Of a DNA stretch of 64,000 nucleotides, positions 39,224 through 59,744 are shown piece by piece; the stretch's first letter is position 1, and every line of letters begins with the position of its first letter. Both the position numbers and the translations under genes were made by a program. The DNA comes from Margaritispora aquatica (Eukaryota; Ascomycota; Leotiomycetes; Helotiales; Discinellaceae), in the NCBI GenBank assembly GCA_007644065.1, contig VJWN01000006.1:186001-250000 (forward strand). The letters are read 5' to 3'. The notes beneath the pieces are model-generated. The model saw only the letters and a program-made list of their open reading frames with translations, searched no databases and was not told the origin of the DNA.

Positions 39224-40428
39224 TTAAGAAAATGAACCGCCCTTCAAGTACCAAGCTTTTGCAGCATCAACCCCTTCTCTTACACTCCGAGCCATATAGG
39301 TATTCTTTTCACACTGCAGTAACCAAGAGTTGTGGTAAGTCTTGAGCTTCGCGTATTCGCCCTCTTCGATGGTAACATGGTCAATACCCCACAAAGTACT
39401 AAGGATATGCACATGCAGTCTGTCACTAATTATGAGTCCTCCCCTGTGAAGGAAATCCCACGCCCATTCTAGCCTAAGCCATGCCTGGCCATCGTGGTCT
39501 GTTTTATCCAGTCCTGCGGGGTCTTCCTCAAGCCAATCCATGATTTGTACTTGAGTTTCTACCATTTCACCAGCCTCATTAACAACGTGTTGTAATTCTT
39601 CAAACGTCGGTCTCTCTTGCCAGTGATTTTGTTTGCCTTCTTTGTCCGTCCGTGCTAAGAAGGTAAAAGAATAGCCTTTATTTTCCACAACCTTTTGAGG
39701 AGAGAAAGTAATCAGCATAGTTGCCGCATCAGGAACCAAGATAATATCATGTTTTGTGCCAAAATCTTTTTGTAGATCCGCATATGACCTTGTATCTCTT
39801 GCGGCAAGTTGAAGATCATGGTGTTTGGCATAAATTTTCTGTGTATGTTGCAACTTATTCGGATCCTCGAACTTGTAGGTCTGAGGAAATGATCGGATGC
39901 GATAATCAAGGAATTGCTCAACAACCATGTCGCGCATCGTTTGTTCGCCATACCAGAGATCACCAAAGTTTCCCCCTCCAGTGAGCATGATGGCTGTTTT
40001 CTCAGGACCTCCATTTTTGACCAATCTCTCACGAAGAACTGTGGAGTTGAAATCTTGTGGACGGCTACAACTGTATATGCTTTTGATATTCAAGGCATCA
40101 AGTAGAATGTTTTGTCCCGACCAAATGGCCGAATCGCCTTTGTTTCTGTTATAAATTAGTATATAATAGACATGGACGATAGGATTCTTTACGGGTAATC
40201 GGGGAATCCAATGACAGCCACATGAGTGACTCCTTGTAGTAATTTGCGGTATTCAGTCTTGAGTATTTCTACTTGTGAGGCAAGGGAAGCCGAACAGGAA
40301 TTGTGTTGATAAAGACCAATTGTAACATCCTCAACGGTTTTATTGAAACCATTCCTACTTATAAAGTAGGTATTAATGACCAAAAATAAAAGTAGTAGAG
40401 ACTGATAGAGACGTTGATGAGAAAGCAT
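39224..40428 (-). CDS. Polysaccharide pyruvyl transferase family protein (Pvg1-like)
   Basis: Two exons (40193-40428, 39224-40145) encode about 385 residues. The N-terminus is a signal anchor (LYQSLLLLFLVINTYFIS). The catalytic domain starts at the splice, which restores GFPDYPNKGDSAIWSGQNILL, the G-P---N-GD-AI motif of the pyruvyl transferase family. AIMLTGGGNFGDLW and GLIISDRLHVHILSTLWGIDHV (the conserved DRLH motif) follow. Members such as S. pombe Pvg1 transfer pyruvate from phosphoenolpyruvate to a galactose residue to form a 4,6-ketal, adding negative charge to Golgi-made glycans; bacterial homologues modify exopolysaccharides. Topology fits a Golgi-lumen enzyme. It diverges from the GT25 at 41371 and is the left-most gene of the glycan cluster. 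The start is the ATG at 40428. Confidence 0.9.
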
Positions 40429-41370
40429 GATTGAAAGAGATATGATGGATCTGTGAAGGCAAAACATAGAATGCAACTTCCTATATAAATAAATACTTAT
40501 AAAAAAGGTAAAAAAGAGGATCAAGAGATATAGTAATCAATAAATTATTAAATTAACGACCAAAGTAACATAAAGAAGCTATTCCTTTTAGATTAGGATA
40601 ATACTATGGTTTTAACCCAAATAGGTAGCTAAATAGAAATATGTTTCAGTTTAGATCAAAGCCAATTCAATCAAATTGGTTTCAACCCACAAAAGCCAGC
40701 CAAAACAGCCTATATTCTTTTAGTCTTTCTCGAATCGAACCATACAATGTCAAACTATACTATTGTGTTGTGTTTTTATAAAATCATGTGCTTTTTCCAT
40801 TTATTTTCTTATTTCCTTGGCTTTCATTACTCTTTCTGAATATTGTTTCAGATAAACTTGGAAACAATTTCAAAAGAAAAGAAAACATCCACAAAAATAA
40901 AACTTGTCTCTAGGGTATAATTGGTATCTCTGATAGACTATTGGATATGTTTTTACCATTGCCGTCAAATAGCCACTGTAAATTGCGCTCGTTCAAACAA
41001 ATATAGAACATTGGTGTTCCAGATTGGTATCCTCTAGTGAATGATTTGTTTCATATCACAACAATATCATAGATCTCAAAATGCGACAAGATTTGGGATT
41101 ACAAAAATGATAGTTTCACTCCTTTTATAAAACAAACTGATTGACCGCACCAAAATGATCCCTGGATGGTTTAGATCCGAACCTGACGAAATGATATGAG
41201 GGCAAAAGAAACACTTTGATAGGGGTAAAAGGGGTTCGTTCATAGTGTGGGGGCAAATACTGCCCTAATATGATGCTATTAATTGTTTATTGGAAAGGTG
41301 ATTCATATCTTATATAGATTATTTTATTGTGAAAAGATTTTAGGAGGTTTACTTCATTCATGCCAATCCA
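40429..41370. promoter_or_regulatory. Divergent promoter of pyruvyl transferase and GT25, with GGGGGCAAAT site
   Basis: A very AT-rich spacer of about 940 bp. It holds the decamer GGGGGCAAAT at 41249-41258, 113 bp before the GT25 ATG, preceded by AGGGGTAAAAGGGG at 41221-41234. The same core recurs once in each of the three other divergent promoters of the cluster. Confidence 0.5.
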
Positions 41371-42650
41371 ATGTCCTGTCCTTCAAAGATGGCACTTTTG
41401 AAAGAACACATGTTCGTACCATTTGTCAAGATCCTTGTGTTACGAAGAACTGTATTTGCAATAATTGCACTTCTTTTACTATGCTTAATTTTTGGAGATT
41501 CATTTCTGAGCTTGAGTTTTCAACAATCACATAGTAGGAAATACATGAGAGATGACATAGCAAGGAGAAGTTCGGCATCAAATAGCACACTTGGCTTTCA
41601 AGCCATTTTTGTTGGCATAACACCTGGGTAAAATTTGCTTTCCATACTCTCTACTGTGCTAATTTTTGTATTGTCACACAGAAGAACCGACCAGCGCGAT
41701 ACAATAACACTCCTATCTTACTATTCGGGCTTGGACATCACAATAGTAGATGGGGTAGATGGCGATGCAATCTCGAACAAGTCCTTACCTGTGGGGAAAA
41801 GCCGAGAAACCCTGAGGAACCCTGAGCTGGCATGCTGGCGGGTTCACATGAATATCATGAATTTGATCATATCCAAGAAGATCCAAAGTGCTTTGATTTT
41901 GGAAGCAGATGTCGATTGGGATATACGGATCAAAAAGCAAATGGAAAGCATATCTGATCATATTCCTGACTCAACCTCTCAACATCCATATGGTAAAGGT
42001 AGCTCTGTTGGGCAGTTTGGGTAGATGCTGACTATTTGTCCCATCTAGGACTTGACTGGTTGTTCCTTTGGCTTGGTCATTGTATACATGGAGCGGATCC
42101 TAAAAACCCCGGGCCTTATGTTCTATACCCAGACGAGACTGTCTCAGCTCATGAACATTTCAATTCGTATGTGAAGCGCGAGTTTGAGGCATACAATTAC
42201 ACGGAAGGCTACCGCCGTCTTATATATCGTGCCAGAAGTACTACACTCATTCGTTTCTCCATACTTTGAATGCTATACTGACAAACTACAGCCCCTTTAT
42301 GCACTGCTGGATATGCTGTAACACTAGAAGGAGCACTACGAGCACTTTACAAGTTTGGATATCATAAGCTTGATAAGCAGATTGACCAGGAGTACAAGGA
42401 CGCAACTCTTGGTGGGTGGCTACCAGGACTTGTTGTTACGCCACCTATTATGGCTCAATGGAAGACCGGAACGCAGGCCGACTCTGATATTGAAGTTGTC
42501 AGAGAGAAGAATATACCAGACGGTGGAACTAGTGGTTTTGCTGTTCAGTCAAGCGCCCGAAAACACCTCAATAATCGGACATATATTAACGAAATAGTGC
42601 GTACACCATACAAAGTTGGTTGGGCACATGTTGGGATCGATCGTATTTGA
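41371..42650 (+). CDS. GT25-family glycosyltransferase (LPS-biosynthesis/collagen galactosyltransferase type)
   Basis: Four exons (41371-41627, 41682-41992, 42049-42237, 42292-42650) encode about 371 residues of a type II membrane protein with a signal anchor (TVFAIIALLLLCLIFGDSF). The GT25 domain shows RTDQRDTITLLSYYSGLD, ITIVDGVDGDAISNKSLP, ELACWRVHMNIMNLII, the presumed sugar-nucleotide/metal site ALILEADVDWDIRIK, WLFLWLGHCIHG, and PLCTAGYAVTLEGALRALY after the last splice. GT25 enzymes include bacterial beta-galactosyl- and glucosyltransferases and animal collagen beta-galactosyltransferases; the donor here is unknown, though galactose is the commonest. Introns 1-3 are in phases 2, 1 and 1, exactly as in the paralogue at 58560. 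It shares a divergent promoter with the pyruvyl transferase. Confidence 0.88.
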
Positions 42651-43746
42651 GGAATTTCGTATCTGCCGCGCAAAATCAGCACCTAAGGTTTCTGATATAT
42701 TGCAAATTGCAGTAAGACTAAAGTAATGGAAAGCTTCACTTAATCGTTCTGCACTTTCCATTTTTCGGTACTTGTATCTTTGTAGATATGACAATTGCAA
42801 GTATAATATAAGTTACAGTACTTACTGACCAGAGATCATCGAAATTCTATTTTACAAGTTACCCAATAATTTCCTTTCTAGCGTCGACAGAACAATTCCC
42901 TCAAGGCCTCCATAGCGAGGATGGCCGTGGTTGTTCTAGTCCCAAGTACTATACACACCCCGTTGGTCCGAATATTTCGTTACGTACAAAAGTCCTAGGT
43001 TAGAGTGACGAAAGCTAGAGTTTATTTTAGTAAGCAGTCCAATAGTTATACCTTAAATAGGTAATAGCCAGGCTTGTCTTTGATTAGTACTAGCTAAAGT
43101 AAGGTCTTGTATTCTATAGAAGGAAAACTGATCTTTGTTCCGATAGTGTTTTGGCGAAAAATGATAGATGGTGGGGTAGTTTTGGATGTGGTGGGGTAAC
43201 CCTATTCATAAATGGACATCATTTGAATCATGCTGACAACACCAAATTCTCGATTTTGGTCAGACATACAGAAGAAATGACTGTAATGATTCCATATCGG
43301 CACTTTGTGTTACCATTTTCGTGACAATCGTGCTATATGGAAATTTGGTATCTCTACCCAATGTCCGGGTTCCGACTCAGCGCAGCTCACTTGGCGATGC
43401 TATTCTAAGTCATGCTAAGGCAATTGCTTTTCTCTGCCAAGCTAATATGTGATAGACGAAGAAAGAAACACGCGACCAAAATCAAAATACAGGGGTGTCG
43501 AATTAGCGATCAAATGTCTCACTAGGAAGTTTGTTCTTTCTGGAGGCTGAGGCGGTCCTGCATTGTGGCGCTGCCACCATCCAAGCTAAGAAAAAAAAAA
43601 CATCACACATTTACATTATCTGGGCTGGTTAGGGGAAATTTAATTCGGGATGCAGAAGTTGATTCTGCTTATCGGGTTTGATATCTCGAGCTTCAAGTTC
43701 CTGTGGTACAGGTCTGAAGCTGCTGGAACTATTACCAACTATCGCT
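42651..43746. other. Intergenic region carrying copy 1 of a duplicated block
   Basis: This spacer lies between GT25 and GT8. It contains copy 1 (about 42956-43144) of a non-coding sequence repeated at about 46592-46760. A TGGTGGGGTA motif is repeated at about 43169 and 43188. No gene is visible. Confidence 0.5.
42956..43144 (+). repeat. Dispersed intergenic repeat, copy 1
   Basis: This block aligns by eye with 46592-46760. Shared landmarks in the same order include AGGTTAGAGTGACGAAA (AGGTTGGAGTGACGAAA in the other copy), TTAGTAAGCAGTC, TTGAT-AGTA, TAGCTAAAGTAAG and AAGGAAAACTGAT. Many differences are transitions, and this copy carries an internal insertion. It is non-coding and lies in the same orientation as copy 2, both ahead of plus-strand glycan genes. 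It may be a duplicated regulatory segment or the remnant of a small transposable element. Confidence 0.75.
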
Positions 43747-44819
43747 ATGATTCCAAGAGTGCCTCGATCGCGACAGATACCTGCCACTAGGAGGATCCTG
43801 CTTTATGTTGTAGCTGGTGCTACAGTTTTGTTCTTATTGAATTTGGTATTTTCTAGTAAAGAGAAGGATTTGACTTCGCGACCAAAGACCTCGCACTCCG
43901 GGACACCAGGAAAAAATTATGCATTCGCTGCATTTCTTGCGGCGCCAAGTCATGACGTGAAGGAAGACAATGACGACCTCTACTATGTTGGAACAAGAAT
44001 GATGATCTACCAATTGCTACACGATCCAGAAACTGCCACGAACAATTCGTACCCAATGGTAGTCTTGGTCACAGATGGGGTTTGTATGTTCAGATCTCCC
44101 CATCGCTTTCGATTAAAACTTACCAGTCTATAGCAGAATCAAAACGTAGAAGACTAGCTCAAGACGGAGCCATAGTGCTACCTGTCGAGAAGTTGGCTCT
44201 GGGATGGGCAAAGGTTCGAAAACAATGGCGAGATGTGTTGACAAAGTTACGTCTTTTCGAGCTCACCCAGTACGATAAAGTTCTGTTCCTGGACTCGGAT
44301 ATGCTCATCGTAAAAAGAATGGACGGCATATTCGATATCCCAGAGACCGACATTCAGAAAAATCGAGGGGACAAGTCAGAAGCAGCATCACCTTCAGATG
44401 AGGGAGAGCAGCCGTCAGAATACATTTGGGCAGGAACATCAGGGTCTGGAGGCTATGACCATCCATATCCCCCACCAGCAGGAGCAAATCCAAATGCAGG
44501 ATGCGTTGTTTTCAAGCCTTCGAAAGCAATGTTTGAGTACTACTTGGGACTTGCACAACTTAAGGACAGATTCGTCGGTAGGACACCAGAGCAGAGCTTA
44601 TGGGGATATGCGCACAGGAGGAATGGCAATATGCCTTGGAAACAGTTACATTACGATTGGAACATGAATTGGGCGTCTTGGCGCGACTATGAACACGGAA
44701 TTAGGTCACTGCATTCTAAGTTTTGGGAGCTCGATCACGATAAAGAGCTCAGAGATTTTGCAATGAGCATTAGGTGGAAGATGGAAGGATTTTGGATAGC
44801 GAGAGATATGCAAGAATGA
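43747..44819 (+). CDS. GT8-type (glycogenin-like) glycosyltransferase
   Basis: Two exons (43747-44083, 44134-44819) encode about 340 residues. A basic N-terminus and signal anchor (RILLYVVAGATVLFLLNLVF, about residues 19-38) give type II Golgi topology. The catalytic part shows YAFAAFLAAPS, YPMVVLVTDGVSESKRRRL across the splice, LRLFELTQYDKVLFLDSDMLIVKRMDGIF with the DXD metal site, and NPNAGCVVFKPSKAMFEYYL followed by PEQSLWGYAH, a classic GT8 layout (donor-binding DXD, then N-G--V, then DQ-like loop). The enzyme probably transfers glucose, galactose, GlcNAc or a similar sugar from a UDP donor in the Golgi. The donor GTATGT at 44084 was chosen because the earlier GTTTGT would break the frame. 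It lies in the glycan cluster. Confidence 0.85.
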
Positions 44820-45204
44820 TCTAGTAGGGTTAATCAATAAGAGGCAGCGCATGTGATTGATATCTTGAACATCTTTATAATTTTGTTTGAAAAGAAAAGT
44901 CTAGTCAACAACTTGTGATTTTGACAGACTCTGTCGAGAATAGATTCATTCATGATTATGCTTTAAATCTCTTGTAAGCCATATGTGGTTCCCCCATTCA
45001 GTGACTAATAAAGCTGTTCTGACTACGTCATGCAACGTGACATACACAGCTAATATGCTCAAGTATCGATTCTTATTCCTCACAATGATTTCACACTTTT
45101 TCTCACTTTTGCAAGGAGGCTTCATCTTTCAGCTGGATATTCTGGAATAATTCTTCACTATACAAACTGCTCGTACTTGATATGCTCCACATGTCCCTCG
45201 GGTA
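44820..45204. other. Intergenic, 3' flanks of GT8 and decayed GT25
   Basis: A convergent spacer of about 385 bp. Nothing further is recognised. Confidence 0.45.
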
Positions 45205-46245
45205 TTAACGTCTCATGCGAGATGTCACCAAATTTGTCCCCCTCAGGAAACTGTGCTTTGAAGGTCTTTCCCCACCAACAAATCTGTCCATGTTCACTCT
45301 TACAGAATACTGTACATCAAGTGTCTCTGCAACCCTCCTTATTGAGCCAGCGGCGTTAACTCGGCCAGGATCTTTTGAAGTGTCTCCTGAGTCCTTGAAA
45401 GAGCCAAGTATTGTGTGCCATGGATGTACACATTTAAATGGCAGTTCGCGAGAGCTACACTTTCGGCTCAATCCTCCATCAATGGAGTGTGCAAGTTTCA
45501 TTGACTGGATATAAAGTAGTGGTCGTGCTCCGTGTAAGGACAACACATACCCAGAAGTGCATCGGCCTCCATCTGATTCAAAAATAAGCTGACTCTAGTT
45601 GCCTGGAAGAGGGGCAGGCCACCTGTTGGGTCTAAATCTATATATCTTCTATGGAGCTGGGACCGTAGGTCATCTGGCATAACGTAATAATTCCCGTTTT
45701 CTTTATACCGATTGGCAGCAGAGCAATGTCCCAACCAGAAAATATCCCAGTTGTCGCCATAAGGAGAATAATAGGGTTGATGGTTTCGATGCGTTGTACT
45801 GCAGTGCCATTGAGTCATTGGCGAATTCCTAAAGTTTTTTCTCAGTACGATGTCCCAGTCGGCCTCATCGTCTAAGGTCAAAGCACTTTGAATATTTTCC
45901 CGAACCATCTCACAAGTAGGAAGCATAAGTTGGGTGTGTTTGTGACGAGGAAGCAAGAGAACGAACATTTGCGCAAATTCCATATGACCACGCCAGCATT
46001 CTAGAGGATTATTTCCTCACTCCTTTATCTATTCATTTTCTTAAATCAGTAAGAGCTCACTTTTCTTCTATGGTCCAATCTATACCTTGGGAAGGGCTTT
46101 GTCTGGGATGTCACTATTCTTCACTCCCCTGAGCCAATCGAAAGTAAAGCTAGAACATTACGCCCCCATCGCAATGCTACACTGCTTATCTGTTCGCTCT
46201 GGCGCCGAAAGTATGAAAATTCTTTGCAACTGAAATTCGAGTCCT
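45205..46245 (-). pseudogene. Decayed GT25-family glycosyltransferase
   Basis: A third GT25 is readable from N- to C-terminus on the minus strand, but broken. From the 5' end: RIFILSAPERTDKQCSIAMGA (46245-46165), an in-frame TAA (about 46162), then FTFDWLRGVKNSDIPDKALPK in the same frame. A frame change follows before GIDWTIEEK, then an intron to ECWRGHMEFAQMF. A further intron leads to MVRENIQSALTLDDEADWDI, GDNWDIFWLGHCSA, an intron starting at about 45621, and DGGRCTSGYVLSLHGARPLLY to the stop at 45205. Every GT25 landmark seen in the intact genes at 41371 and 58560 is present, so the family call is firm. The stop and the frameshift near the N-terminus make it a recent pseudogene, unless the sequence is wrong there. 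Introns in the 3' half still look functional. Confidence 0.78.
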
Positions 46246-47232
46246 GGTTAATAATCATTTTTTGAAAGTTCAATGTGTAAATCTTACCCGAGTATTTGAT
46301 TTTTGATTTGCAATTGTCACGTTGAAATCAACTCGTTCATAATATTATTCGTAACATCCCCGATATTAATCTAAGATGAAATTTAAAAACGAAGGCTATG
46401 AGTCTAATAATTGCAATCACTTTGCCTCATGGAAACCGAGAGCGGGGTAGTGGTGAAAACATGGTTTTTGATGGCCTGCTTTGTGTCCGAAGCTTCAATT
46501 GAACTTCTTCAAGAGACTAAATTGAAAACCATTATTCTAAGCAGCAGGTACGGATTTATTGGTCTGGGAGTGCCCTAAGCAGATGAAAGCGCATCCCCTC
46601 GTGTTGGTTTGGACATTTTGTTGCGTGCTAAAGGCTTAGGTTGGAGTGACGAAACCAGGAGTTTCTGTTAGTAAGCAGTCTGGTAAAAATGCCTTGATCA
46701 GTATTAGCTAAAGTAAGAAGAGCTTGCATTCTTCAAAAGGAAAACTGATATTCGTTCAACTAATCATGCCAAGCCCCACAGATTTAAGCGACAGGGGCAA
46801 ATAGGGGTAAGCGATAAGAAGTAAGACATAAACGACGGGAGAGCCTCCTTTGATCCTGCATTACACACGGATGACACGGGAGGGAGCCGTTGATCCAAGA
46901 GGAAGATAAATTTGCGCCTTTGACTTTCCAAGTGATCAGTGATCTGGGACCCCCACAATCTAAATTGTGGAAAAGTAAGTTAGCTGGCTTTTGTTTGCTT
47001 CTTACTTGGCTTGAAAACCAAAAGCCACATACACTCTCTGCTCCACCCCCTGATTTCCCATCCACTTTGGGTTCAACATGTTACGTCAGCTCGGCCATCT
47101 CTGTCGCGAAAATGATTTCTTGTAGAGAACTACACCTACTAGCATGTGACATTCATTGCCTGCAACACAGTAATTGTGGATGCTAGATCTTCAAAGTCAA
47201 CACTCGCCAATATACTTTGTGCATATTCTACT
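46246..47232. promoter_or_regulatory. Divergent promoter (decayed GT25 / fucosyltransferase-like) with GGGGCAAAT site
   Basis: This divergent spacer contains copy 2 of the dispersed repeat (about 46592-46760). Just after it come GGGGCAAAT at 46794-46802 and AGGGGTAA at 46803-46810. The latter also occurs beside the site at 41.2 kb. The site is 430 bp from the downstream ATG. No gene is recognised. Confidence 0.5.
46592..46760 (+). repeat. Dispersed intergenic repeat, copy 2
   Basis: This is the partner of the block at 42956-43144, in the same orientation and about 3.6 kb downstream. It is shorter by about 20 bp, and differs mostly by transitions and small gaps. See copy 1 for the shared landmarks. 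Confidence 0.75.
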
Positions 47233-48630
47233 ATGTCTCTTCTTCCTGTCAGGGCAAAGGCCAGCGTCAGGCTTGGAGCACTTGTCCTGCTGGCATTTTC
47301 TAGCCTTTATTATATTGCATACGTCCAGCTCCATCACTTGCACTCAAGCTCGGAGATTTACTTAGAGCCCAATGTTGCCATCGAAGACACGTCCCGAACA
47401 GCTTGGAGTAAACCATTGCCGGCGGAAGAATGGATTGAAATTGCTAGCAAGGTCGACATTGACGGGCCTTTCGACATCACCCCACTGCGCGAACACTGCT
47501 CGAAGAAAAAGCCAAGCCCAGGGTTAGTCTTTACCTGTAATCAAGCAAATGGGGGTATTGGAAATGTTCGCAACCAACTTCTGGGATGTATTCGATACGC
47601 GATTGAAGCAGGAGGAGGAGTCGTGCTACCACGACCGGTGGTTCGTGACAAAAATTTGATGCGAACAGGAACCGGAATCACAGCCAACTTCACTTATATG
47701 TTTGATGAGGATCATTTCCGTAAAACCATGGCAGATGCATGTCCTTCATTCAAGATATATCCGGCTGTAGAGGGGCTAAGGAAGCTTCCAAGTGTTCTTT
47801 ATCCGCAGAAATTTGGTGGTGATGTGGCATATGGTCAAGTCATAACCGAGCCGGAATTTTGGAGAGAGCGATTTGATGTGTGGCTCAAGAATGAGACTGA
47901 AACTTTTGAAATCAAGAGTATATCTGAAGAAGAGCCGCTATTGATTCTGTTTGATCAAACATTACTCCTCCGGCAGCCTGTGGATTTCGATGGAGAGGAG
48001 TTCAAAAACTCATATGGACGTATCCTACAACTGCGACCAGATGTCAGGAAATTGGCAGCAACTGTTATATACCAGCTTGGAAAGCGTTTTGACTTGACGC
48101 TAGACCCATCATCGTGCACACACGCCGATGCATATTTCGGAGCCCACCTCCGCACAGAGCAGGATGCTCTGAAAGTCTGGGGCGACGCCAATTTCGACAC
48201 ACAATCAAGTCAATACATCAACAAAACCTTGGAAACTGGAGTATCAATCATATATGTTGCAACTGGCAGCCCTGAGGAGCTTGATAAGATGCGAGAAAAG
48301 GCTTGGGAGGAAGCTGGGCTCAATGTCACGTCAAAATTTGATCTGCTTGATAAGGAAGACTCAGCATACCTACGCACGTTAGAATGGGATCAACAGGCAT
48401 TGGTTGACTACGAAGTACTGCTCAAATCATCTTACTTTGCAGGGTTTATCAAGTCTACCTTTGCTTGGAATATTGCACTGCGTCGACACATCTTGTCCAA
48501 AATAACAGATCCATACCCCGAAAAGGTACTGGGTCTTATAGATGAGTACTCCCACATCTATGGGGAACATGACTATAAGAGACGGAAGAATCCATGGACC
48601 ACGTCAATTCAGTGGAGTATGTGGCCTTAA
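47233..48630 (+). CDS. GDP-fucose protein O-fucosyltransferase-like glycosyltransferase
   Basis: An intronless gene of about 465 residues with type II topology: a short basic N-terminus, a signal anchor (LGALVLLAFSSLYYIAYVQL, about residues 13-32), then a GT-B-type domain. NGGIGNVRNQLLGCIRYAIEAGGGVVLPRP resembles the N-terminal glycine-rich loop of O-fucosyltransferases (N-GLGN------ A-A----- -LP). AYFGAHLRTEQDA carries the HLR motif whose Arg contacts the GDP-fucose phosphate. The C-terminal segment DYEVLLKSSYFAGFIKSTFAWNIALRR matches the D------S--F-G---S-F motif. A fucose donor is the best inference; other GDP-sugars are possible. The ATG at 47233 places the anchor near the start. It lies beside a nucleotide-sugar transporter and opposite a decayed GT25. 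Confidence 0.8.
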   Translation: MSLLPVRAKASVRLGALVLLAFSSLYYIAYVQLHHLHSSSEIYLEPNVAIEDTSRTAWSKPLPAEEWIEIASKVDIDGPFDITPLREHCSKKKPSPGLVFTCNQANGGIGNVRNQLLGCIRYAIEAGGGVVLPRPVVRDKNLMRTGTGITANFTYMFDEDHFRKTMADACPSFKIYPAVEGLRKLPSVLYPQKFGGDVAYGQVITEPEFWRERFDVWLKNETETFEIKSISEEEPLLILFDQTLLLRQPVDFDGEEFKNSYGRILQLRPDVRKLAATVIYQLGKRFDLTLDPSSCTHADAYFGAHLRTEQDALKVWGDANFDTQSSQYINKTLETGVSIIYVATGSPEELDKMREKAWEEAGLNVTSKFDLLDKEDSAYLRTLEWDQQALVDYEVLLKSSYFAGFIKSTFAWNIALRRHILSKITDPYPEKVLGLIDEYSHIYGEHDYKRRKNPWTTSIQWSMWP

Positions 48631-48889: not shown

Positions 48890-50070
48890 TCAATCCAACA
48901 GCTGCTGTGACTCTTCATCTCCCTTGAATAGACTTGGGTCTTTTGTTTGACTTTTGGTCACAAATTGACTCCCAGACTCCTGTGTTATTCTAGAATACTG
49001 ATATGTTCCCATTCCAGCAATGCTAAATCCAATCGCCTGTGTCAAACTCATTGGACTCTGATAGACAAACATATCGAAGATACAGATCATGATGGATTTT
49101 GGTATTCCGCTTAAGGTCAGGACAACGGAAGATGTCTTCTTGATCTGAACCGCGCTTATTAGCTTTTCCTATGGTCACATGTTTGGACAGGGACAGAGAA
49201 ATGTTCATACCACAGTGACTGAAGCAATATTGAGGGCGAAAGTGAGAAGACCATTCGAAAAAATAATTGCTGGTTTGATGTTTGGGAAATTTGATGTTGT
49301 CAAATCTCGGTACTCGAATGCAAGTATAAAAAGAGAATTGATGACAGTGCAGGCAGGAGCGAAATAGTAGAGCAAAGTTAGGGAGCTCATTTTCGATTTT
49401 CCACTTAGAAGGGTTTGTTGTAGAGCATTTTTGTAAGCTTCGAATCCAATGGCAGCTGCTTGAATCAAGAAACCTGTGGCAACGAATCGAACTTCCCCCC
49501 AAGATGAAATTGCGACCCCAGCGACAATTATGCAAACTGTCACGAAAACTCTGACTGAAGGTTCTGGGTTCCGAATACCCAGACTCCAGCAAGCAAGAAG
49601 AGTCGAGACTGGGCCAAATGCCTTGAACATAGCTTTCGTCAGTAGTTGGAACTCTATTGGATTTGGTTGGCCTACCTTGAGCATTTGAATGAATGACATG
49701 CTCAGATACAGATATACCAGATTGGAAAGTATTAGACTCATGCTGAAGCACATCCCAATAGGCAGCACGGCTGTCAAATATTTCCGTACTGTCATATCGG
49801 TGCTCTCATCTATCAGTGAAGTTGTGCGTGCTAGAAGCTGAGTGGCAAGGGTTGCAAACAACATATGCCATGTTGTAATTGTGATGGAAAACGGAAATCG
49901 ATCTAGAATCCACTTGTTGAATAAGATGACAATAGAGCTTAAGGCAATCCATAAGCTGCAATTAGATCAGTATCTTTCTGGTCTCCTCGCTACATGGGTA
50001 CAACTCACGTGATGTACAGGAGACTTTCCAATCTTTTGCGACTCAAGTAAGAAGTTCCTAAGATTGCCAT
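48890..50070 (-). CDS. Nucleotide-sugar transporter, triose-phosphate-translocator (TPT) family
   Basis: Four exons (50009-50070, 49676-49955, 49211-49621, 48890-49144) encode about 335 residues with roughly ten membrane segments. Family landmarks: ALSSIVILFNKWILDRFPFSITITTWHM in the first segments, LSMSFIQMLKAFGPVSTLLACWSLG across splice 2, SWGEVRFVATGFLIQAAAIGFEAYKNALQQ, and the diagnostic KT motif in IKKTSSVVLTLSGIPKSIMI. A hydrophilic cytosolic tail ends the protein. It should exchange a nucleotide sugar for its monophosphate across the Golgi membrane; the particular sugar cannot be told. It probably supplies donor to the glycosyltransferases around it. The acceptor for exon 3 was chosen to keep phase 0, giving MLK-AFGPV. 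A TA-flanked MITE is inserted 121 bp upstream of its ATG. Confidence 0.88.
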
Positions 50071-51134
50071 GTTGTGCTCGTTTGACAAATTGTGTGAAAG
50101 AGAGGGAGTTGTAGAGAGTGGCCTAGTGTTTTGAATGGAGCGAGTTTCTACCGCCAAGATTCAACTCTCGATTTATCAGATATAACCTTGTACAGTGGGG
50201 TGCAAAAAATTGAAGACCCCCCCCCCCTTGCAACGCCAAACAGCATAATCCTAATACGGTATATTTTTTATGCCGCTTTTTCTACGATCTCTATCCATCA
50301 AGAGTATCAACAATACCGCCACAAAAAGAAAACTCCCCTTAGAGGAGGAAAAGAAGTATATTATGTATAATATAAATAATCCTTTACTCTATAGACTGGC
50401 TATTACTATAAATAATAGAAGTTGATACTTTAGTACAGTTAAAAGAGTAGTTTATAAAATATTGTAATTATAAAAGCAGTATAGAAAACATACTGTATTG
50501 GGTTTATGCTGCTTGGCGTTGCAAGGGGGGGGGGCTTCAGTTTTTTGCACCCCACTGTAGGGCCATCAAAAGCATAATGTGATCAATGCTAAGGGGGATG
50601 GAATTAGACTTCGTCAGTGGCGGAAAGCAGATATCAATGTCTTGCAACTTGAGCTAGCGTTGTCACAGCTGAACAGATCGGGACAGAGCTGGCGTTCTGA
50701 GACCGAAGCCATGCCACGTCGAAGAAAGTACGGAGTAACGGCAAGTCAATAGATTCCACAACAAAAGTTCTTGCGGGATGAGGTTTTATTCTTTTTGAAT
50801 ATCCAACTTCTGATTAGGAATCATCATTGCTTTTGATAAGTTTGACCCATGTTCGGTGAAAGGAACTTGGCATACGGAATTAGACGCCAAGAAGGTATAC
50901 AGGCCAATACGTTTGGGCGCAGATGAAGCTCTTGAATAATGATTAGCAGAATTGCTTTCGAGACTTGCGTCTCATTGTGGCTATCAATCAGGTCATTTAA
51001 ATATGAGAACCTAGCCTGTATTAAATTTCATTTCAATTTCAAGTCATGAAGTGATTATGTAGTGACTTGGGATCACCAGCCGAGAGGTGAAGTAAATTGC
51101 AGATAAAATAAAGATATTTGATACTTGAATTCAA
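50071..51134. other. Intergenic region with MITE, upstream of nucleotide-sugar transporter
   Basis: This spacer holds the transporter promoter and the 3' flank of the Stealth gene. It includes a 365 bp inverted-repeat element (annotated separately). I see no GGGGCAAAT site and no other gene. Confidence 0.5.
50193..50557. mobile_element. MITE with long terminal inverted repeats and TA target duplication (Tc1/mariner-like)
   Basis: The two ends are near-perfect inverted repeats: CAGTGGGGTGCAAAAAA at the left (50193) and its complement at the right (ending 50557), both followed inward by a homopolymer (11 C on the left, 10 G on the right) and then TTGCAACGCCAA-CAGCATAA. Similarity continues for about 100 bp from each end with scattered substitutions. 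The element is flanked by TA on both sides (50191-50192 and 50558-50559), the target duplication of Tc1/mariner/pogo transposons. It has no coding capacity, so it would have been moved by a transposase elsewhere. The AT-rich middle is unremarkable. Confidence 0.9.
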
Positions 51135-53817
51135 TTAGACCATAGTCTTATGTTTATTCTTTGGTAACGAAGACTTCTCAAAGGGGCTTGGATCCGGCAC
51201 CATGCTCTCTAACAGCTTTGTCATGACTCTCTTGACGTTTTTGACTTCGTCTTCATCCTCAGTATTCACATCATCGTTCAAACATAGTTGTCCGACCTTG
51301 CCCTTGCGCTTTATTAGTCTCTTGAACAAGACGTTTTCCACCTGCTCTGCATCTGTGATCATGACAAAATATGCATCGGGATCAACAATGACGTATTGAT
51401 ACTTCCACAACGCCTTCACAACCACCTGCCTTGCCTCTGCCTGGCTTTCAGGATCTGGCAAAAGAGGTTGAAGTCCCTTTTCGACTCGGTTAAGGATTAA
51501 TTTCAGAAGACAATCACCGCATTTGGGTTGATGTCTTGCGAGTCGTTCGAAGATTATTGCCGTGCTAAACGCCCAATTCTTGTATGATTTATCCGAAGAT
51601 GAAGCCGAGAAACCAGGTGCTAAACATTCGTTGACGTTGAACTCGGAACAGTCGATATCTTTGATGACCATAGGTCCATCCATAGATGTCCATTGCACAT
51701 CTACATTGACTTTTGGTGCCTCCAACCCAGCTGCCTCTAGTGCTTCGTTGACGTTGTAAAACATACGTTTGCGAAAAGTACTCATACCCTCGTTTTTCAT
51801 GCCCTCCCCAAGCTCTTGCATAATGGCTTGCCTTTCATGCCAGTTTAAGTTGCCATCTTGATTGAGATCGCTTCTCTTCATGATATAGCTCCATAGCAAT
51901 GCCTCCCTGTGTCTTTCCATGGTATAGTGGAATGTGACGAACCAGGAGTAAAGCTGGAACCCGGCTTCACCTCTGAACCTCTGAGACGTACTTTGTAATG
52001 CTGGTCGAGGGAATGACTTCATAGCTTCCCGCATCACAGATCGTGAAAGTGAGTGACCAAAATGGACCTGGCCCTTTCGCTTACGTGCACCGAATCGTCG
52101 ATTGAGCACCCAAGATGTATATATAAGAAATGGCTTCTCTCCGAAACGACGCGCATCGAGATCTGATGGAGGATTTAGAGTGTTATAAGAATTGGTCTTG
52201 AATCCCATTGTTGGACCAAATAAAGGCGAATAGATATCTGAGGCTGCATGCACCTTACCGAGGAGCATGTCATCTGAGAGCGCGAAAACCTGTTAGAAAA
52301 TTAGATTTTGCCATCTACACGCTGTTGCCAGCATTTTACTCACTCGATCTGTATCAGACTTTGTATTGAACAATTGATTTTCAATCGTTAAGGAATTGAA
52401 TGTTGGAAGACAACCTTGTTCAGCAGGGTCGAAGAAATCTTCCTGTGACAAAATCTTCACAGTATTTCTTGTAAACTTGTCGTCATTCAGCCATAATGGA
52501 ATTTGTTTTCCAGTAATCAATGCTGAAGAATCCAATGTTGCATTTTGATAGTCCTCTCGGCTGCCGACAGAGTTCACCAGGAGTTGAATTTTGTTTCTGA
52601 AAGTGCCTGCATACTTTTGCACACTACGGATCGAATAGCGAAGCTCGTCCCAGTCACGATATCTGTTCACACGATGCGATTCCATCCACTGTCCCGCCTC
52701 ATCATTTAAGGACGAATTTTTCTCGTACGGGAATAAGGTATCCTGAAATCTTTCCTCTGACCCATTGACCCCTGCAAATATTGTCAATAAGCCAATTTCG
52801 TTTCCAAAATGTAATCAGTTGAGCTTACATGTGTAAACAAAGTCAATCTTGGGTTCTGGAAGACTTCCCCACCTCGTGATATCAAAAATTGCGTCAGAAA
52901 ACCACTGGTCTTCCCAACCGACCAGATTGACATCCTCGGTTGCTTCCTCAAAAGGTATATGAATCATTTCTGGCAAAGTTTCTGCTTTCTCTCTTAGCTC
53001 CTCACATGCTGAATATGGAGGAAACAACTGTAGCTGCATCCCAGACATGTTTTGGCCGACATCGGAGACTTTTTCAGAGTCCTCTTTGATCCCCAGGCTC
53101 TGCGGTTGTACAATAACTTTCTGAGAAGCTTCAAGTACCAGTGTTGTTGGCGTATTTCTCACGCCAATCTCTATCTTATCATTGTCTTTGCTAGGAGATC
53201 TAGAGTTCTCTGACTCTTCTTCGTCTTCTGATTTATCCAAAGCTGATTCATGCTCGGCATCTTTCGTCACACGCAGAGGTGGGCTATAATGTAGCTCGGA
53301 AGATTCGTCGGGCGTTCTTTTCGTATTCTTTTTATCATTGAGAGTTTTTGCTCCGTCGCCTTCTTCTTGTAGAGAATCAGCGTTCCCAGATTGTAATGAA
53401 CTTTTAGAGAAACTTGCTAACGCAAGATCTTCCTTCCCTTCGAGTGCTAACTTTTGGTCGCGTGGTAGGAGATGGGATTCGGATATAGCTGTGTGTGTTA
53501 AAACCCGGCATTCCTGTGACCGCGAGATATCACGGATTTATTAAAGACTTACCAGGTTTATTTGATGTGATTGGTACCAAAGCTTCCTGCTTCTGTACAG
53601 GCTGGTACTCGGAGCTGCTGTGGCTCGTATTAATTTGTGTGATTTCGATATCTTCAACTTCTTGAGATCCAAAATCAAGTACCGAAGAGTAGCGGTGCCA
53701 AGTAAAGGTACAAAGTGCGCAGAGAAAGATCATTCGACCCCATTTCATCAGTGGCCGGCGTCGAGCTGTTTTTGTAGCGCTCGCCCAATGCGGGAGTTTC
53801 GATGGAGATCTGTACAT
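51135..53817 (-). CDS. Stealth-family sugar-phosphate transferase with EF-hand
   Basis: Four exons (53553-53817, 52829-53488, 52344-52771, 51135-52289) encode about 835 residues. A short basic N-terminus and signal anchor (WGRMIFLCALCTFTWH) precede a long acidic Ser/Glu-rich stem. Splicing creates Stealth region CR1 (KIDFVYTWVNGSEERF). CR2 follows (RYRDWDELRYSIRSVQKYAG; TFNSLTIENQLFNTKSDTDR-VFALSDDMLL across splice 3), then CR3 (SWVLNRRFGARKRKGQVHFGHSLSRSVM), an EF-hand loop (DLNQDGNLNWHE) and a CR4-like C-terminal part (KYQYVIVDPDAYFVMI). Stealth proteins transfer hexose- or pentose-1-phosphate: bacterial capsule enzymes, animal GlcNAc-1-phosphotransferase (lysosomal tag), Cryptococcus Xpt1. 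This one probably builds sugar phosphodiester links on a Golgi glycan; donor unknown. It diverges from the GT34 gene. Confidence 0.9.
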
Positions 53818-54812
53818 TGCAAGATCAAATTGCAAAGAGAAAAGTAGGAAGCATAATCGAATAGCAGGCTTGATCGCAATTATTCGGATTTCAGTACATC
53901 ATGTTTTTTTTATTTTTTTTTTAGCGAGGTGGTCACAACGACGAGGGGAAAAGACTTTCGTGGTTGTGTGTGTTCAACAACTGTCATTTCTTCCCGCTGC
54001 TCCTTGGGCATCGTAGGCACGGCTGGAAGAAAGATAAGAAAATTGCGAAGCTGAAAATGCACAACGCAGCCCTGTATGGCAAATCCGATACCCCGAGCTA
54101 CCAAGATTTATTTCTGCGCCTTGATATGACAAAATTCACCATGTTTCGTCCACAACAATTCAAGTGGAGAACTAGTAAGAAGAAGGAAGAATATAAGACA
54201 CCTAAATTTGGCCCATGACTCTGAAAGCAGGTTGTTAAGCGAATAGCATGAGATAAAGCAGAGTTGAAAACCGTTTGGAAAAACAAAGTACCATGGAGCA
54301 TAAATCTCGAAAGGAAATATAAATAGCTGATTGGTTCAGCGATATCCATCTACCAAATGCATCCACTGGCCCTCAATGCTTTTTTGGCTCGGCACTTCCT
54401 TGACTAATTCAACACATCAGTCTTCGCTTTGGTGACTCTTCACTTTGACACGATGGGATTCAGGGGGAAATTGTTTGCAAAGAGGCTTGTTCTTTGCTTT
54501 TGGTGAAAAAGCCATCCGGCTCACACCCCTTGCCACTAATACGGACCTGCTTAAGCGAATTTGCCCCTTATTGAGGCCAAGATTGGCGACCCCACCAAAA
54601 CAACAATTAATATTTTTACACCGCGATTTACTCTACATACCTACTGGTGAAGCTCGGCAACCAACCTACCTTCCCTCGTCTCCTAGATTGGCCCACCCTT
54701 TAGGCTTCTTATTTTCTCTAAATTCTTCACTTCAGTTATCAACTTGTCGCTTCAGATTCTTTCTGCCATTTCTTACCAACCTATTGAATCGCATGATACA
54801 TCCACATATCAC
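53818..54812. promoter_or_regulatory. Divergent promoter of Stealth and GT34 genes with ATTTGCCCC site
   Basis: A roughly 1 kb spacer with no recognised gene. ATTTGCCCC at 54559-54567 is the reverse complement of the GGGGCAAAT core seen in the other divergent promoters of the cluster. It is 246 bp from the GT34 ATG and about 740 bp from the Stealth ATG. Confidence 0.5.
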
Positions 54813-55941
54813 ATGACTTCTTCTTGCAGTCCTGGAAGATCAACCAAACGATTCTTCAAATATGTTTTGGTGCTTGCAGTAGTTAGCTTCATTATACTCT
54901 GCGAGTTTTGGAAGCAACACGAGACCGGGCAGGCTCTTCAGTCACGCGGAGGATCGACACAGAGGAAGAGCAGCACCCGATCAAATGCTGATCTTGCATC
55001 ACAAAATCCACTCCATGACTCCCAGACAGACAAAGAAAGTGTGACACAGCCTTTGGTAGGTAAGGTTACTATATCTTTTGGAGAACAGGAGGCGGTTTAT
55101 GAGCGGGCCATTCGTTCACATGAGTACCACAACAAAAAGTTTGGATATCCCCAATTCGTCCTCAGAGAGAGACTCATGTCAGGTCTCTGGTCAAAGCATG
55201 CCTACATCTTCTCCGTGCTAGTTCAAGAGCTTTCAAAGCCTGAGGGACAAAGACTGAAATGGATCATGTAAGTATCTCCTTAAGCATAGATATGAGTTTG
55301 CTGATTTATTTGAAGGTGGCTTGATCGTGACACTGTTCTCATGAATTCACGTTTACCCCTGGAGATTTTCATCCCACCTCCTGAATTTGATCATATTCAC
55401 CTTTTGATGACCAACGATCGAAATGGTCTAAACAATGGGGTCTTCTTTTTGAAAGTAAATGAGTGGGCACTCAAACTGTTCTCATCGGCCTTGGCGTATG
55501 GTCACTACAACCCGGGTGTCAAACTCAAGTACACAGAGCAATCTGCTATGGAGGAGACAATCCTGCGGACAGTAAGTCTGGCCAATCGTCTTTTAGTTGG
55601 CATGCAATCTTACTATTCATTAGAATTGGTTCAATAAGTCATCGGCAAGAGTTCCTCAACGTTGGTTCAATGCATTTCCTCCCTCTACTGATGGGAAAGG
55701 AAAATTACAAGACTTCCATGGTCGCCCAGGCCAGCTTTTACTTCATTTCGCTTCAAACAGAGATGGACTTCGTCCAGACAGGATGAATCATTGGATGGAC
55801 ATTGCCGATAATGAAGAATCAGAGTGGCGAGTATCTTTAAACGATACTAGTTATCCTCAGCAGATAGACGAATACTGGAAGAGATTGAAGGCTGGAGAGA
55901 ATGTTGCATCTATCATTGATTCTATCGAAAGGCAACCTTGA
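54813..55941 (+). CDS. GT34-family galactosyl/mannosyltransferase (Gma12/Mnn10 type)
   Basis: Three exons (54813-55267, 55316-55571, 55639-55941) encode about 337 residues. The anchor is FFKYVLVLAVVSFIILCEF (about residues 14-32), followed by a Ser/Gln-rich stem. The domain reads VTISFGEQEAVYERAIRSHEYHNKKFGYP, then SGLWSKHAYIFSVLVQEL, then KWIMWLDRDTVLMNSRLPLEIF, where splice 1 completes the D-x-D metal site (DRD), then NGLNNGVFFLKVNEWALKLFSSALAY and EQSAMEETI. This is the GT34 plan (alpha-1,2-galactosyltransferase Gma12, alpha-1,6-mannosyltransferase Mnn10/11, plant xyloglucan xylosyltransferase). Galactose or mannose is the likely sugar in a fungal Golgi. With a pyruvyl transferase in the same cluster, galactose is attractive, since pyruvyl ketals are placed on galactose in fission yeast. 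Confidence 0.87.
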
Positions 55942-56093
55942 TATTTCTCTATGGGAGTGTCATTTTGCGCGAATATATATCTAGCCTTAATGGCATAACA
56001 TCTCGTGAGAGGTTGAAATCATAAAGTGCGAAGAACAAATTGATAGTGACTGCATTAACGCTAAAGCTATGTACAGATATGAAGACAGTGTGG

Positions 56094-57928: not shown

Positions 57929-58559
57929 TAGAGGAGATCAGTGATCAACATGGGAAGCCTTGACAGCGAAGGTAGCGGTAATAACACTGGATCGGAGAAA
58001 ATAATTGGTCAATGTGTAATTACCACAGGGAAGTGAAAATTTCAAAAACCCCGCCCCTAGAGTTGATAATAGAGCCGTTGCGCAAATGGGCCGCGAAATG
58101 GTCGCAGAAATCAAGGCCCTAGAGGCTACGTAAAGAAGCTATTCTGAGTACTAGTAAACAGCCCGAATGTGATAGATCTCTAATCTGACGAAGATTGTGG
58201 CGTTGAATTCACGCAAGGTACATCCTGCACGTCCTTGAAGATCGCATGATGGTCTTATATTTGCTTCTTGGGGCTGAATAGGAATTCGGTTAAGACCCGC
58301 AAGCGTATCCCCAATTTTCCAGAGCACTTACCACGGCTGAGACTTTATCAAAAGAGATATCAATGGGTCTCATGAAACGCAAGGATAGATGGACTCCTGC
58401 ATGAAAAGAAAATTCTCATCACACGATCGCTCAACCTAACAAAACTGGTGGGGGCAAATAATGAAAAGGGGGATTTGCTTGTATTATTGACACTTGCAAA
58501 GTCTGGATCATGGAGATAGCTTTCGATCACCATGGGTGAAGATTTTGCAGTCAGCATCT
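57929..58559. promoter_or_regulatory. Divergent promoter (decayed GT77-type / GT25) with GGGGGCAAAT site
   Basis: This spacer of about 630 bp carries GGGGGCAAAT at 58450-58459, 101 bp before the GT25 ATG. Spacing and orientation are almost the same as in the other GT25 promoter (113 bp). No gene is recognised. Confidence 0.5.
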
Positions 58560-59744
58560 ATGGCCTACTCAAACACACAAATGCGTCTTCCGGCATTTTC
58601 GTCAAGAATATCACGAATATTCGGCATTCTCGTGCTAGTATGCACGGGATGGCTTTGTTTTACAAATATCTCGCGAAACGATGGTGTGAGCAACTCTCGG
58701 ATTCTTGACCTGACACCGCGAAATCGAACGCTTGGATTTGGGGCTATATATATGGCAGTTCTTCCAACGTGAGTTACGTACTGCCTCAAGGAAGATGTAT
58801 TGTCGCTAAATTTTTAGATAGTCGCACTGATCATATCGATGCTGCAGCATTACTTTCACATTATAATGGCATTGAAATTAGCATCATTGATGGTGTAACT
58901 AATTTTTCACGCAAAGCGCTCCCAAAGGGCACTGGTGAGAATCTGAACGCGGGCGAGTTGGGATGTTGGCGAGTTCACATGAACTTTCTAAGAACTGTAG
59001 TGGAGAAGCGACTGGAAACTGCTTTGATACTTGAAGCGGATGCGGATTGGGACGTGAGAATCAAGGATCAACTTACGAAGTTGTCTGATAATTTGCCAGA
59101 TACTACTCCCAGAAACCCTTATGGTAAGTTAGGTATGAAAGTGAGAAGACATTGAACATCATCTGAGTTCTCATAGGGTTTTCCTGGCGATTTCTATTTT
59201 TGGCCAATTGCAAACATTTTCCAGATGACAAGAAAAAGGGGCCTTCGATTGTGTATGAGGACGAGACGGTAGGTTCAATGGAAGATCAGCAAGACTGGGT
59301 GAAAGATGAGGCGAAGCATTATGGGGTGAAAGGAGATAACAAAAGAATCATCGGAGCAGCTTTCAGTAAGTTCAAGGTCAGCTAATTCAAATAACCTCGC
59401 TAATAGTACACGAAGGACCTTTATGCACAACTGCATATGCTGTGACTTTAGATGGAGCAAGAAGAATGCTGTATGAGATGGGAATTGAGGGGATCACGCG
59501 AGCAGTGGACGTTGAATTCAGAAAGGCAACAATGAATGGACGGCTTCCAAGTCTGGCGATTACACCTCCACTTATGGGGCAGTTCAGAACAGGTTTAGCA
59601 TCAGATTCAGAACTTCGTAACACTGAAGTGAAGGATATGAGGACCTTTCACGTTGGAGCTGGTCCACAGGTGAGGCAAAGTGCTCGATTGGCTCTTCGTG
59701 AGCAGGTCTATGAAGACAAAAGCGTCGGTTGGGCTCATGTATGA
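58560..59744 (+). CDS. GT25-family glycosyltransferase, second intact paralogue
   Basis: Four exons (58560-58768, 58822-59123, 59177-59365, 59407-59744) encode about 345 residues. The anchor is IFGILVLVCTGWLCFTNI. GT25 landmarks: PTRTDHIDAAALLSHYNGIE, ISIIDGVTNFSRKALPKG, ELGCWRVHMNFLRTVV, ALILEADADWDVRIKDQL, and HEGPLCTTAYAVTLDGARRMLY after the last splice. Intron positions and phases (2, 1, 1) and the length of exon 3 (189 nt) are identical to the gene at 41371, showing that the two arose by duplication. The segment normally reading W--LWLGHC is WRFLFLANC here, so a conserved Gly-His pair is altered. Activity may be changed or lost, although the frame is fully open. The acceptor at 58821 was chosen because the earlier AG (58816) brings in a stop. 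Confidence 0.85.

What the first reader, a model, noticed from the sequence alone, without database searches (positions are those of the whole stretch)
39224..59744. A 20 kb fungal gene cluster for a complex pyruvylated surface glycan
Ten consecutive genes or gene relics are all for glycan assembly or donor supply: pyruvyl transferase, two intact GT25 and one dead GT25, GT8, an O-fucosyltransferase-like enzyme, a TPT nucleotide-sugar transporter, Stealth phosphotransferase, GT34, and a dead GT77-type gene. Glycosyltransferases are usually scattered in fungi. The known fungal polysaccharide cluster that comes to mind (galactosaminogalactan of Aspergillus) has a different gene set. The mix resembles a bacterial capsule or exopolysaccharide locus, but with Golgi-type membrane anchors and spliceosomal introns. 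Seen: gene content and motifs. Inferred: one shared product, probably a charged galactose-, fucose- and sugar-phosphate-containing glycan on wall protein, lipid or as exopolysaccharide.
Basis: partly seen in the sequence, partly recalled or inferred. Interest (0 to 1): 0.9.

Follow-up and report, generated by a model that had tools for sequence, protein, structure and literature searches.

The report
Fungal gene cluster for charged glycan
A mould carries, side by side in 20 kb, eight intact genes that look like a production line for a negatively charged, galactose-rich sugar coat; such clusters are unusual in fungi, and what this one makes has not been shown.

Summary
The cluster is real. Between 39.2 and 59.7 kb I modelled eight intact genes: a Pvg1-type pyruvyl transferase, two GT25, GT8, a PF10250 (O-FucT-family) enzyme, a TPT-family transporter, a Stealth phosphotransferase with all four conserved regions, and GT34. 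A third GT25 is a pseudogene; the "dead GT77" could not be confirmed. In the 42.4 Mb genome the only pyruvyl transferase, Stealth and GT25 sequences found lie here, so chance is very unlikely. The fungus is helotialean. Fucose is doubtful: no GDP-mannose dehydratase was found; a glucose-4,6-dehydratase was, so rhamnose is possible, though its second enzyme is unproven. The TPT protein may import phosphoenolpyruvate for the pyruvyl transferase, as fission yeast requires; that is inference. Conservation is patchy: Stealth and GT25 lie 4 and 5 locus tags apart in two black yeasts, but those GT25s belong to another clade; a helotialean relative keeps a Stealth–WSC pair without the other genes; pyruvyl transferase is unlinked to Stealth in Exophiala spinifera. 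Product, co-expression and enzyme activities are untested.

The parts
39224..40428 (-). Pvg1-type polysaccharide pyruvyl transferase, 385 aa, 2 exons (40193-40428, 39224-40145), N-terminal membrane anchor (by eye)
   Evidence: PF04230 76.4 bits; model; PDB 5ax7 E 5e-44; D106, R217, D240, R337, L338, H339 of Pvg1 all kept, H168 is E; AlphaFold model of exon 2, mean pLDDT 93.2, best Foldseek hit 5ax7 E 4e-20
41371..42650 (+). GT25 copy a, 371 aa, 4 exons (41371-41627, 41682-41992, 42049-42237, 42292-42650)
   Evidence: PF01755 30.7 bits, cut-off 24; model; 43% identical to copy b
43747..44819 (+). GT8-like glycosyltransferase, 340 aa, 2 exons (43747-44083, 44134-44819)
   Evidence: PF01501 23.1 bits, cut-off 24.3; glycogenin E 4e-6; model
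45209..46203 (-). GT25 pseudogene (copy c); ends approximate
   Evidence: in-frame stop and frame change; tblastn by copy a at window 45660-45908, E 1.7e-6
47233..48630 (+). PF10250 (O-FucT-family) glycosyltransferase, 465 aa, single exon; donor unknown
   Evidence: PF10250 61.8 bits; model; best-scoring of 7 PF10250 matches in the genome, 6 of them over the cut-off
48890..50070 (-). TPT-family transporter, 353 aa, 3 exons (50009-50070, 49211-49955, 48890-49144); candidate Golgi importer of phosphoenolpyruvate or of a nucleotide sugar
   Evidence: PF03151 70.7 bits; TIGR00817 38.8 bits, far under its cut-off 317.9; model; paralogues on C1 and C23, a remote one on C12
51135..53817 (-). Stealth phosphotransferase, 835 aa, 4 exons (53553-53817, 52829-53488, 52344-52771, 51135-52289)
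   Evidence: PF17101, PF11380, PF17102, PF17103 all over cut-off; GNPTAB 7s6n E 3e-21; residues 270-835 73% identical to the Hyphodiscus homologue
54813..55941 (+). GT34 (GMA12/MNN10 family), 342 aa, 3 exons (54813-55267, 55316-55571, 55624-55941)
   Evidence: PF05637 49.1 bits, cut-off 23; model
58560..59744 (+). GT25 copy b, 342 aa, 4 exons (58560-58768, 58822-59123, 59177-59365, 59416-59744); the WLGHC motif reads FLANC
   Evidence: PF01755 25.9 bits; model; motif
61023..62048 (+). WSC-domain protein just outside the cluster; a homologue lies head-to-head with Stealth in locus L015 too
   Evidence: PF01822 48.3 bits; tblastn to L015, similarity runs past the domain to near the C-terminus

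Best explanation
A helotialean (Leotiomycetes) fungus holds a biosynthetic cluster for a negatively charged, galactose-rich glycan made in the Golgi. Proposed order of work: GT34 and GT8 extend a mannose-based chain with hexoses; the GT25 enzymes add galactose caps; the Pvg1-type enzyme puts a 4,6-pyruvate ketal on the galactose, using phosphoenolpyruvate that the TPT transporter may bring into the Golgi; Stealth adds a sugar-1-phosphate to mannose, as cryptococcal Xpt1 is recalled to do with xylose; the PF10250 enzyme adds a further sugar, possibly rhamnose and less likely fucose. Shown: gene content, integrity, exclusiveness of three families as far as the searches reach, conserved pyruvyl-transferase residues. 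Inferred: substrates, order, Golgi site, one shared product.
For: Eight adjacent intact genes, all of families for glycan assembly or small-molecule transport. Three families found in 42.4 Mb only within these 20.5 kb. Pvg1-type fold and active site. Fission yeast Pvg1 works in the Golgi on galactose and relies on transporters Pet1p and Pet2p for phosphoenolpyruvate (passages of PMC4872226 and PMC6801904). Stealth and GT25 lie 4 locus tags apart in Cyphellophora europaea and 5 in Exophiala mesophila, and a JGI pair shares the contig length 32,464. A dTDP/UDP-glucose 4,6-dehydratase type enzyme is present and GDP-mannose 4,6-dehydratase was not found.
Against: No expression or chemical data. 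Pyruvyl transferase and Stealth lie on different contigs in E. spinifera; pyruvyl transferase and GT25 are 504 tags apart in E. xenobiotica. Helotialean relative L015 has Stealth and WSC but no match to the other seven cluster proteins in 21.6 kb. Of 10 named species listed with both Stealth and GT25, only 2 show them within 5 tags. The GT25s linked to Stealth in black yeasts belong to a different GT25 clade. GT25a and GT25b have EAD where 109 of 122 aligned rows have EDD. No regulator was recognised among the genes. TPT similarity to phosphate/PEP translocators is far under the cut-off. The second rhamnose enzyme is unproven.
Confidence: 0.5

Rival explanations
1. The same enzymes make a secreted or capsule-like exopolysaccharide (or glycolipid) rather than glycans on wall proteins.
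For: Clustered polysaccharide genes are known in fungi for galactosaminogalactan, an exopolysaccharide (abstract starts in the listing; figure legend of PMC13202872).
Against: None of the eight proteins has a Pfam match to a polysaccharide synthase; the glycosyltransferases have a single N-terminal anchor by eye, as Golgi protein-glycan enzymes do; the closest characterised pyruvyl transferase acts on N-glycans (PMC6801904 passages).
Confidence: 0.2
2. Neutral gathering: glycosyltransferase genes collected and partly decaying in an AT-richer compartment, without a shared pathway.
For: At least one pseudogene, a MITE-like element, lower GC3 than flanking models (0.425 against 0.497, 8 against 23 genes), patchy conservation.
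Against: Eight models intact; exclusiveness of three families; recurrence of Stealth near GT25 elsewhere.
Confidence: 0.2
3. The cluster was taken over as a block from bacteria.
For: The families resemble bacterial capsule or lipopolysaccharide genes by name; a search with Pvg1 returned mainly bacterial sequences (PMC6801904 passage).
Against: Spliceosomal introns in seven of the eight models; the best hits with an organism name are fungal for pyruvyl transferase, Stealth and GT25; Stealth groups inside a helotialean clade.
Confidence: 0.02

Closest known systems
Pyruvylated galactose (PvGal) pathway of Schizosaccharomyces pombe (Pvg1, Pet1, Pet2)
   Same: Pvg1-type enzyme with the same PEP and acceptor residues; GT34 belongs to the GMA12 family; a TPT-family transporter beside it that could play the part of Pet1/Pet2
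   Different: Here the genes are clustered and joined by Stealth, GT25, GT8 and PF10250; that the fission yeast genes are scattered and that Pet1 is TPT-family is recalled, not tested; the Pet1 sequence was not on hand
Xpt1 xylosylphosphotransferase of Cryptococcus neoformans, and GNPTAB
   Same: All four Stealth regions; best PDB relatives are GNPTAB chains; several homologues carry the name xylosylphosphotransferase
   Different: Donor sugar unknown; Xpt1 itself was not compared (seen only as names and reference titles; the Xpt1 paper was not held)
Galactosaminogalactan cluster of Aspergillus, Metarhizium, Verticillium
   Same: Clustered fungal polysaccharide genes (listing)
   Different: That cluster is gtb3, agd3, ega3, sph3, uge3 (legend in PMC13202872); the Pfam matches here are to other families
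Bacterial capsule / exopolysaccharide loci
   Same: Mixed GT25, pyruvyl transferase and Stealth content (recalled)
   Different: Fungal homologues, introns, membrane-anchored enzymes; no export protein among the Pfam matches of the eight genes

Membership tests
Pvg1-type ketal-pyruvyltransferase | PF04230 domain over cut-off and Pvg1 as closest solved relative | tested here: met
   76.4 bits against 25.3; 5ax7 only PDB hit at E up to 0.1; Foldseek ranks 1 and 2
Pvg1-type ketal-pyruvyltransferase | D106, R217, R337 (and D240, L338, H339) of Pvg1 | tested here: met
   6 of 6 kept; H168, an acceptor-selectivity residue, is E
Pvg1-type ketal-pyruvyltransferase | Transfers pyruvate from PEP to galactose | not testable with these tools
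   needs enzyme assay
Stealth phosphotransferases | Conserved regions CR1, CR2, CR3, CR4 | tested here: met
   all four over their cut-offs
Stealth phosphotransferases | Sugar-1-phosphate transfer | not testable with these tools
   needs enzyme assay
GT25 galactosyltransferases | PF01755 over cut-off | tested here: met
   30.7 and 25.9 bits against 24
GT25 galactosyltransferases | EDD triad and WLGHC motif of most listed fungal homologues | tested here: not met
   Of 122 aligned rows 109 have EDD and 10 EAD, both copies among the 10; WLGHC in 85 of 122, kept in copy a, FLANC in copy b. Four sclerotiniaceous relatives share EAD and also lack WLGHC, so this may be a diverged subfamily; activity open
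GT8 | PF01501 over cut-off | tested here: inconclusive
   23.1 against 24.3; glycogenin E 4e-6
GT34 | PF05637 over cut-off | tested here: met
   49.1 against 23
GDP-fucose O-fucosyltransferase | PF10250 over cut-off | tested here: met
   61.8 against 31.5
GDP-fucose O-fucosyltransferase | GDP-fucose supply (GDP-mannose 4,6-dehydratase in the genome) | tested here: not met
   best TIGR01472 match 57.5 bits against 415, and that protein scores 280 bits with TIGR01181; a heavily intron-split gene could be missed; salvage not tested
Golgi PEP transporter (Pet1 type) | Ortholog of S. pombe Pet1 or member of TIGR00817 | tested here: inconclusive
   TIGR00817 38.8 bits against 317.9; Pet1 sequence not available
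Galactosaminogalactan cluster | uge3, sph3, gtb3, ega3, agd3 | tested here: not met
   the Pfam matches of the eight genes are to other families; the five genes themselves were not searched for in the genome
Conserved fungal glycan cluster | Same neighbours in relatives | tested here: inconclusive
   Stealth and GT25 within 5 tags in 2 of 10 named species listed for both; Stealth-WSC pair in L015 without the rest

The most novel reading that the evidence does not exclude
This is a eukaryotic counterpart of a capsule locus: one compact nuclear cluster that builds a doubly acidic glycan (pyruvate ketals on galactose plus sugar phosphodiesters on mannose), with its own Golgi phosphoenolpyruvate importer, assembled in one helotialean lineage around an older Stealth-WSC gene pair.
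Probability: 0.3. Interest if true: 0.75.

Novelty: new variant of a known kind. Interest (0 to 1): 0.55.

Why it matters
The fission yeast pyruvylated-galactose pathway is described as incompletely known, with at least five genes needed (passage of PMC6801904). If those functions are gathered in one cluster here, the galactosyltransferase and transporter roles become testable by adjacency: GT25 and TPT are direct candidates. It would also be a fungal glycan cluster with content other than galactosaminogalactan, and would tie Stealth phosphotransferases, which occur in many ascomycetes, to a pathway.

Tried and rejected
Fucose product: GDP-mannose 4,6-dehydratase was sought and not found. Rhamnose is kept only as a possibility: the first enzyme type is present and Botrytis makes UDP-rhamnose (PMC5698552 passages), but the best PF04321 match (C9, 127 bits) reads, by eye and recall, more like a methionine adenosyltransferase regulatory subunit, so the second enzyme is unproven. 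GDP-fucose synthesis is incomplete in several Pezizomycotina too (PMC10481521 passages).

Dead GT77: not confirmed.

Cluster conserved as a whole in relatives: not shown. The pyruvyl transferase found nothing in viral contigs. A GT25 search of the bin holding L015 (7.3 Mb, with fungal contamination) found nothing, which shows little, as the tool itself says.

Recent tandem duplication of GT25: copies a and b are 43% identical and are not sisters in the tree, though support there is weak (82/80, 84/87).

Structure of the PF10250 enzyme: single-sequence model failed (mean pLDDT 33.7), and its one PDB hit at E up to 1 is chance-level. TPT had no PDB sequence match. GT34 had only a weak one, xyloglucan xylosyltransferase 2, E 0.041.

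RIP: TA/AT is 0.65-0.79 over the regions tested; one intergenic stretch, 42651-43746, reaches 0.95, so no general signal. Subtelomeric origin: telomere repeats were seen only at the far end of C46, about 1.6 Mb away; none in the first 3 kb.

Literature: searches returned no paper; one returned two on bacteria; 42 one, on Epibryaceae (Chaetothyriales), whose passage says GT25 and GT34 are expanded there but names no cluster; one listed 10 of 16, none on such a cluster by title or abstract start. Only the open PMC library was searched.
Full report
What is there. The window is bases 186001-250000 of contig C46 (1.885 Mb) of a 42.36 Mb, 49-contig genome. In a tree of the Stealth protein with 39 chosen of the 120 listed homologues, it falls in a well-supported clade (100/98) with Hyphodiscus, Oculimacula, Coleophoma and others; these three are Helotiales in the NCBI taxonomy. 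A match to the Aspergillus sRNA Afu_309 fits a filamentous ascomycete. I modelled eight genes with intact reading frames between 39224 and 59744. Introns are 47-66 nt with GT...AG ends; the PF10250 gene has none. Pfam supports seven of eight over cut-off; GT8 is slightly under but matches glycogenin. A third GT25 copy carries a stop and a frame change.

More than chance. Family searches of the whole genome found one pyruvyl transferase and one Stealth gene, both here. The GT25 profile found one match; tblastn with GT25a found the three copies of this cluster and nothing else at E up to 0.001. GT34 as a family has strong matches on C4 and C2, and tblastn with this GT34 matches only C2 besides itself, at E 1e-5. 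PF10250 has 7 matches, 6 over the cut-off, one of them 66 kb away on the same contig. These searches read exon by exon: one search found one of three GT25 copies and one search missed this cluster's GT34, so absence elsewhere is strong for the protein searches and weaker for the family ones. In the 14 named prokaryote controls PF04230 rang in 8, Stealth, GT25, GT34 and O-FucT in none.

The pyruvyl transferase. Its only PDB relative by sequence is S. pombe Pvg1. The residues that the Pvg1 structure paper proposes for acceptor and PEP binding (D106, R217, R337; passages of PMC4872226) and those added in a review (D240, L338, H339; passages of PMC6801904) are all kept; H168, which shapes acceptor choice, is E. 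An AlphaFold model of the second exon (306 residues; alignment with 40 of the 109 homologues; mean pLDDT 93.2) matches Pvg1 first. Of 109 homologues, 7 bear fungal names: Exophiala (4), Elasticomyces (2), Savitreella (1); the five closest, at 59-66%, come from sources without an organism name. The enzyme is therefore patchy in fungi as far as this search reaches.

The transporter. Pvg1 needs phosphoenolpyruvate in the Golgi, supplied by Pet1p and Pet2p (PMC4872226). That Pet1 is of the TPT family is recalled, not from a call. The cluster protein is TPT family (70.7 bits) with weak similarity to the phosphate/PEP translocator model (38.8 bits against 317.9). Paralogues lie on C1 and C23, and a remote one on C12. 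PEP import is thus a good guess, not a result.

The PF10250 enzyme. PF10250 contains eight subfamilies, most of them fungal (PMC10481521 passages). GDP-mannose 4,6-dehydratase was not found; the best match is a protein that scores 280 bits with the dTDP-glucose 4,6-dehydratase model, itself under that model's cut-off of 365. Botrytis makes UDP-rhamnose through a UDP-glucose-4,6-dehydratase and a second enzyme (PMC5698552 passages). The second enzyme was not identified here: the best PF04321 match looks by eye like another family. So fucose is doubtful and rhamnose possible. That plant PF10250 enzymes include rhamnosyltransferases is recalled.

GT25. Of 122 aligned rows (the two copies and the 120 listed homologues), 109 have EDD and 10 have EAD at the acidic triad; the ten are both copies, four relatives that include Stromatinia (Sclerotiniaceae) and Sclerotinia, two metagenome proteins, and two rows outside that clade, P0299 and P0311. 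In a tree of 37 chosen homologues and the two copies, the copies group with the first six and Acephala (100/99); Acephala has EGD. Copy b also lost the WLGHC motif, which 85 of 122 rows have; the four sclerotiniaceous relatives lack it too. This looks like a diverged leotiomycete subfamily, and whether it transfers galactose is unknown.

Neighbourhood in relatives. No fungal genome collection was on hand, so I compared locus tags and contig lengths of hits. One search listed 120 of 276 Stealth homologues, one search listed 120 of 170 GT25 homologues. Ten named species appear in both lists. Two have the genes 4 and 5 tags apart (Cyphellophora europaea 09575 and 09579; Exophiala mesophila 02158 and 02163). 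Three share a contig length at 121 tags (Lithohypha guttulata) or unknown distance (Lojkania enalia, Cercospora zeina). Five have them on different contigs (Rhinocladiella similis, Clohesyomyces aquaticus, Septoria linicola, Pseudocercospora musae, Xylariomycetidae sp. FL2044). A JGI pair (P0201, P0317) shares the contig length 32,464, which suggests but does not prove one contig; short lengths can agree by chance. Against: the GT25s linked in black yeasts fall in another GT25 clade, so this is recurrence of the same families together, not a conserved orthologous block. Pyruvyl transferase and Stealth are on different contigs in Exophiala spinifera, and pyruvyl transferase and GT25 are 504 tags apart in E. 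xenobiotica.

An older core. Locus L015, a fungal contig inside a bin named Deltaproteobacteria, holds a 72% identical Stealth gene and, head-to-head with it, a WSC protein whose similarity to the window's WSC protein (61023-62048) runs beyond the domain towards the C-terminus. Relative orientation is the same here, but GT34 and GT25b stand between the two. None of the other seven cluster proteins matches in the 21.6 kb of L015 at E up to 0.001. The simplest reading is that the cluster formed around, or was lost from, an older Stealth-WSC pair.

Mechanism and confidence. I hold it about even that the statement as given is right in its main lines (0.5). Exopolysaccharide (0.2) and neutral gathering (0.2) are the main rivals. 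The lower GC3 of the cluster (0.425 against 0.497, 8 against 23 genes, Mann-Whitney p 0.001; flank models are my own rough predictions) and the pseudogene fit neutral decay; the exclusiveness and the recurrence do not.

Relation to the known. Galactosaminogalactan clusters show that fungi can cluster polysaccharide genes (listing; legend); the gene set here is different. The component families are all known. Hence a new variant of a known kind.

Noticed in passing
window 50191-50559: A 369-bp element with about 90-nt terminal inverted repeats (88% alike) whose ends read TACAGTGGGGTGC: MITE-like, Tc1/mariner type by recalled resemblance; about 120 bp upstream of the TPT start.
   Followed up: partly
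window 42962-43140 and 46603-46757: A roughly 180-nt repeat, 68% identical, on the same strand 0.5-0.6 kb upstream of both the GT8 and the PF10250 gene; shared promoter part or element relic.
   Followed up: partly
window 8564-9654: A further glycosyltransferase of the GT32 type (PF04488, 49 bits), outside the cluster.
   Followed up: no
G000 C46:167333-167596 (about 18.4 kb before the window): Another PF10250 gene on the same contig.
   Followed up: no
G000 C23:1878035-1881350 (L030): The genome's one PF03407 (GT77) match lies about 1 kb from a TPT paralogue of the cluster's transporter: a possible second mini-pair.
   Followed up: partly
L015 (NYXK01000235.1): A fungal contig sits in a bin named Deltaproteobacteria bacterium: apparent contamination of the public record.
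   Followed up: partly
window 22667-22949: Rfam Afu_309 sRNA, 124.7 bits.
   Followed up: no
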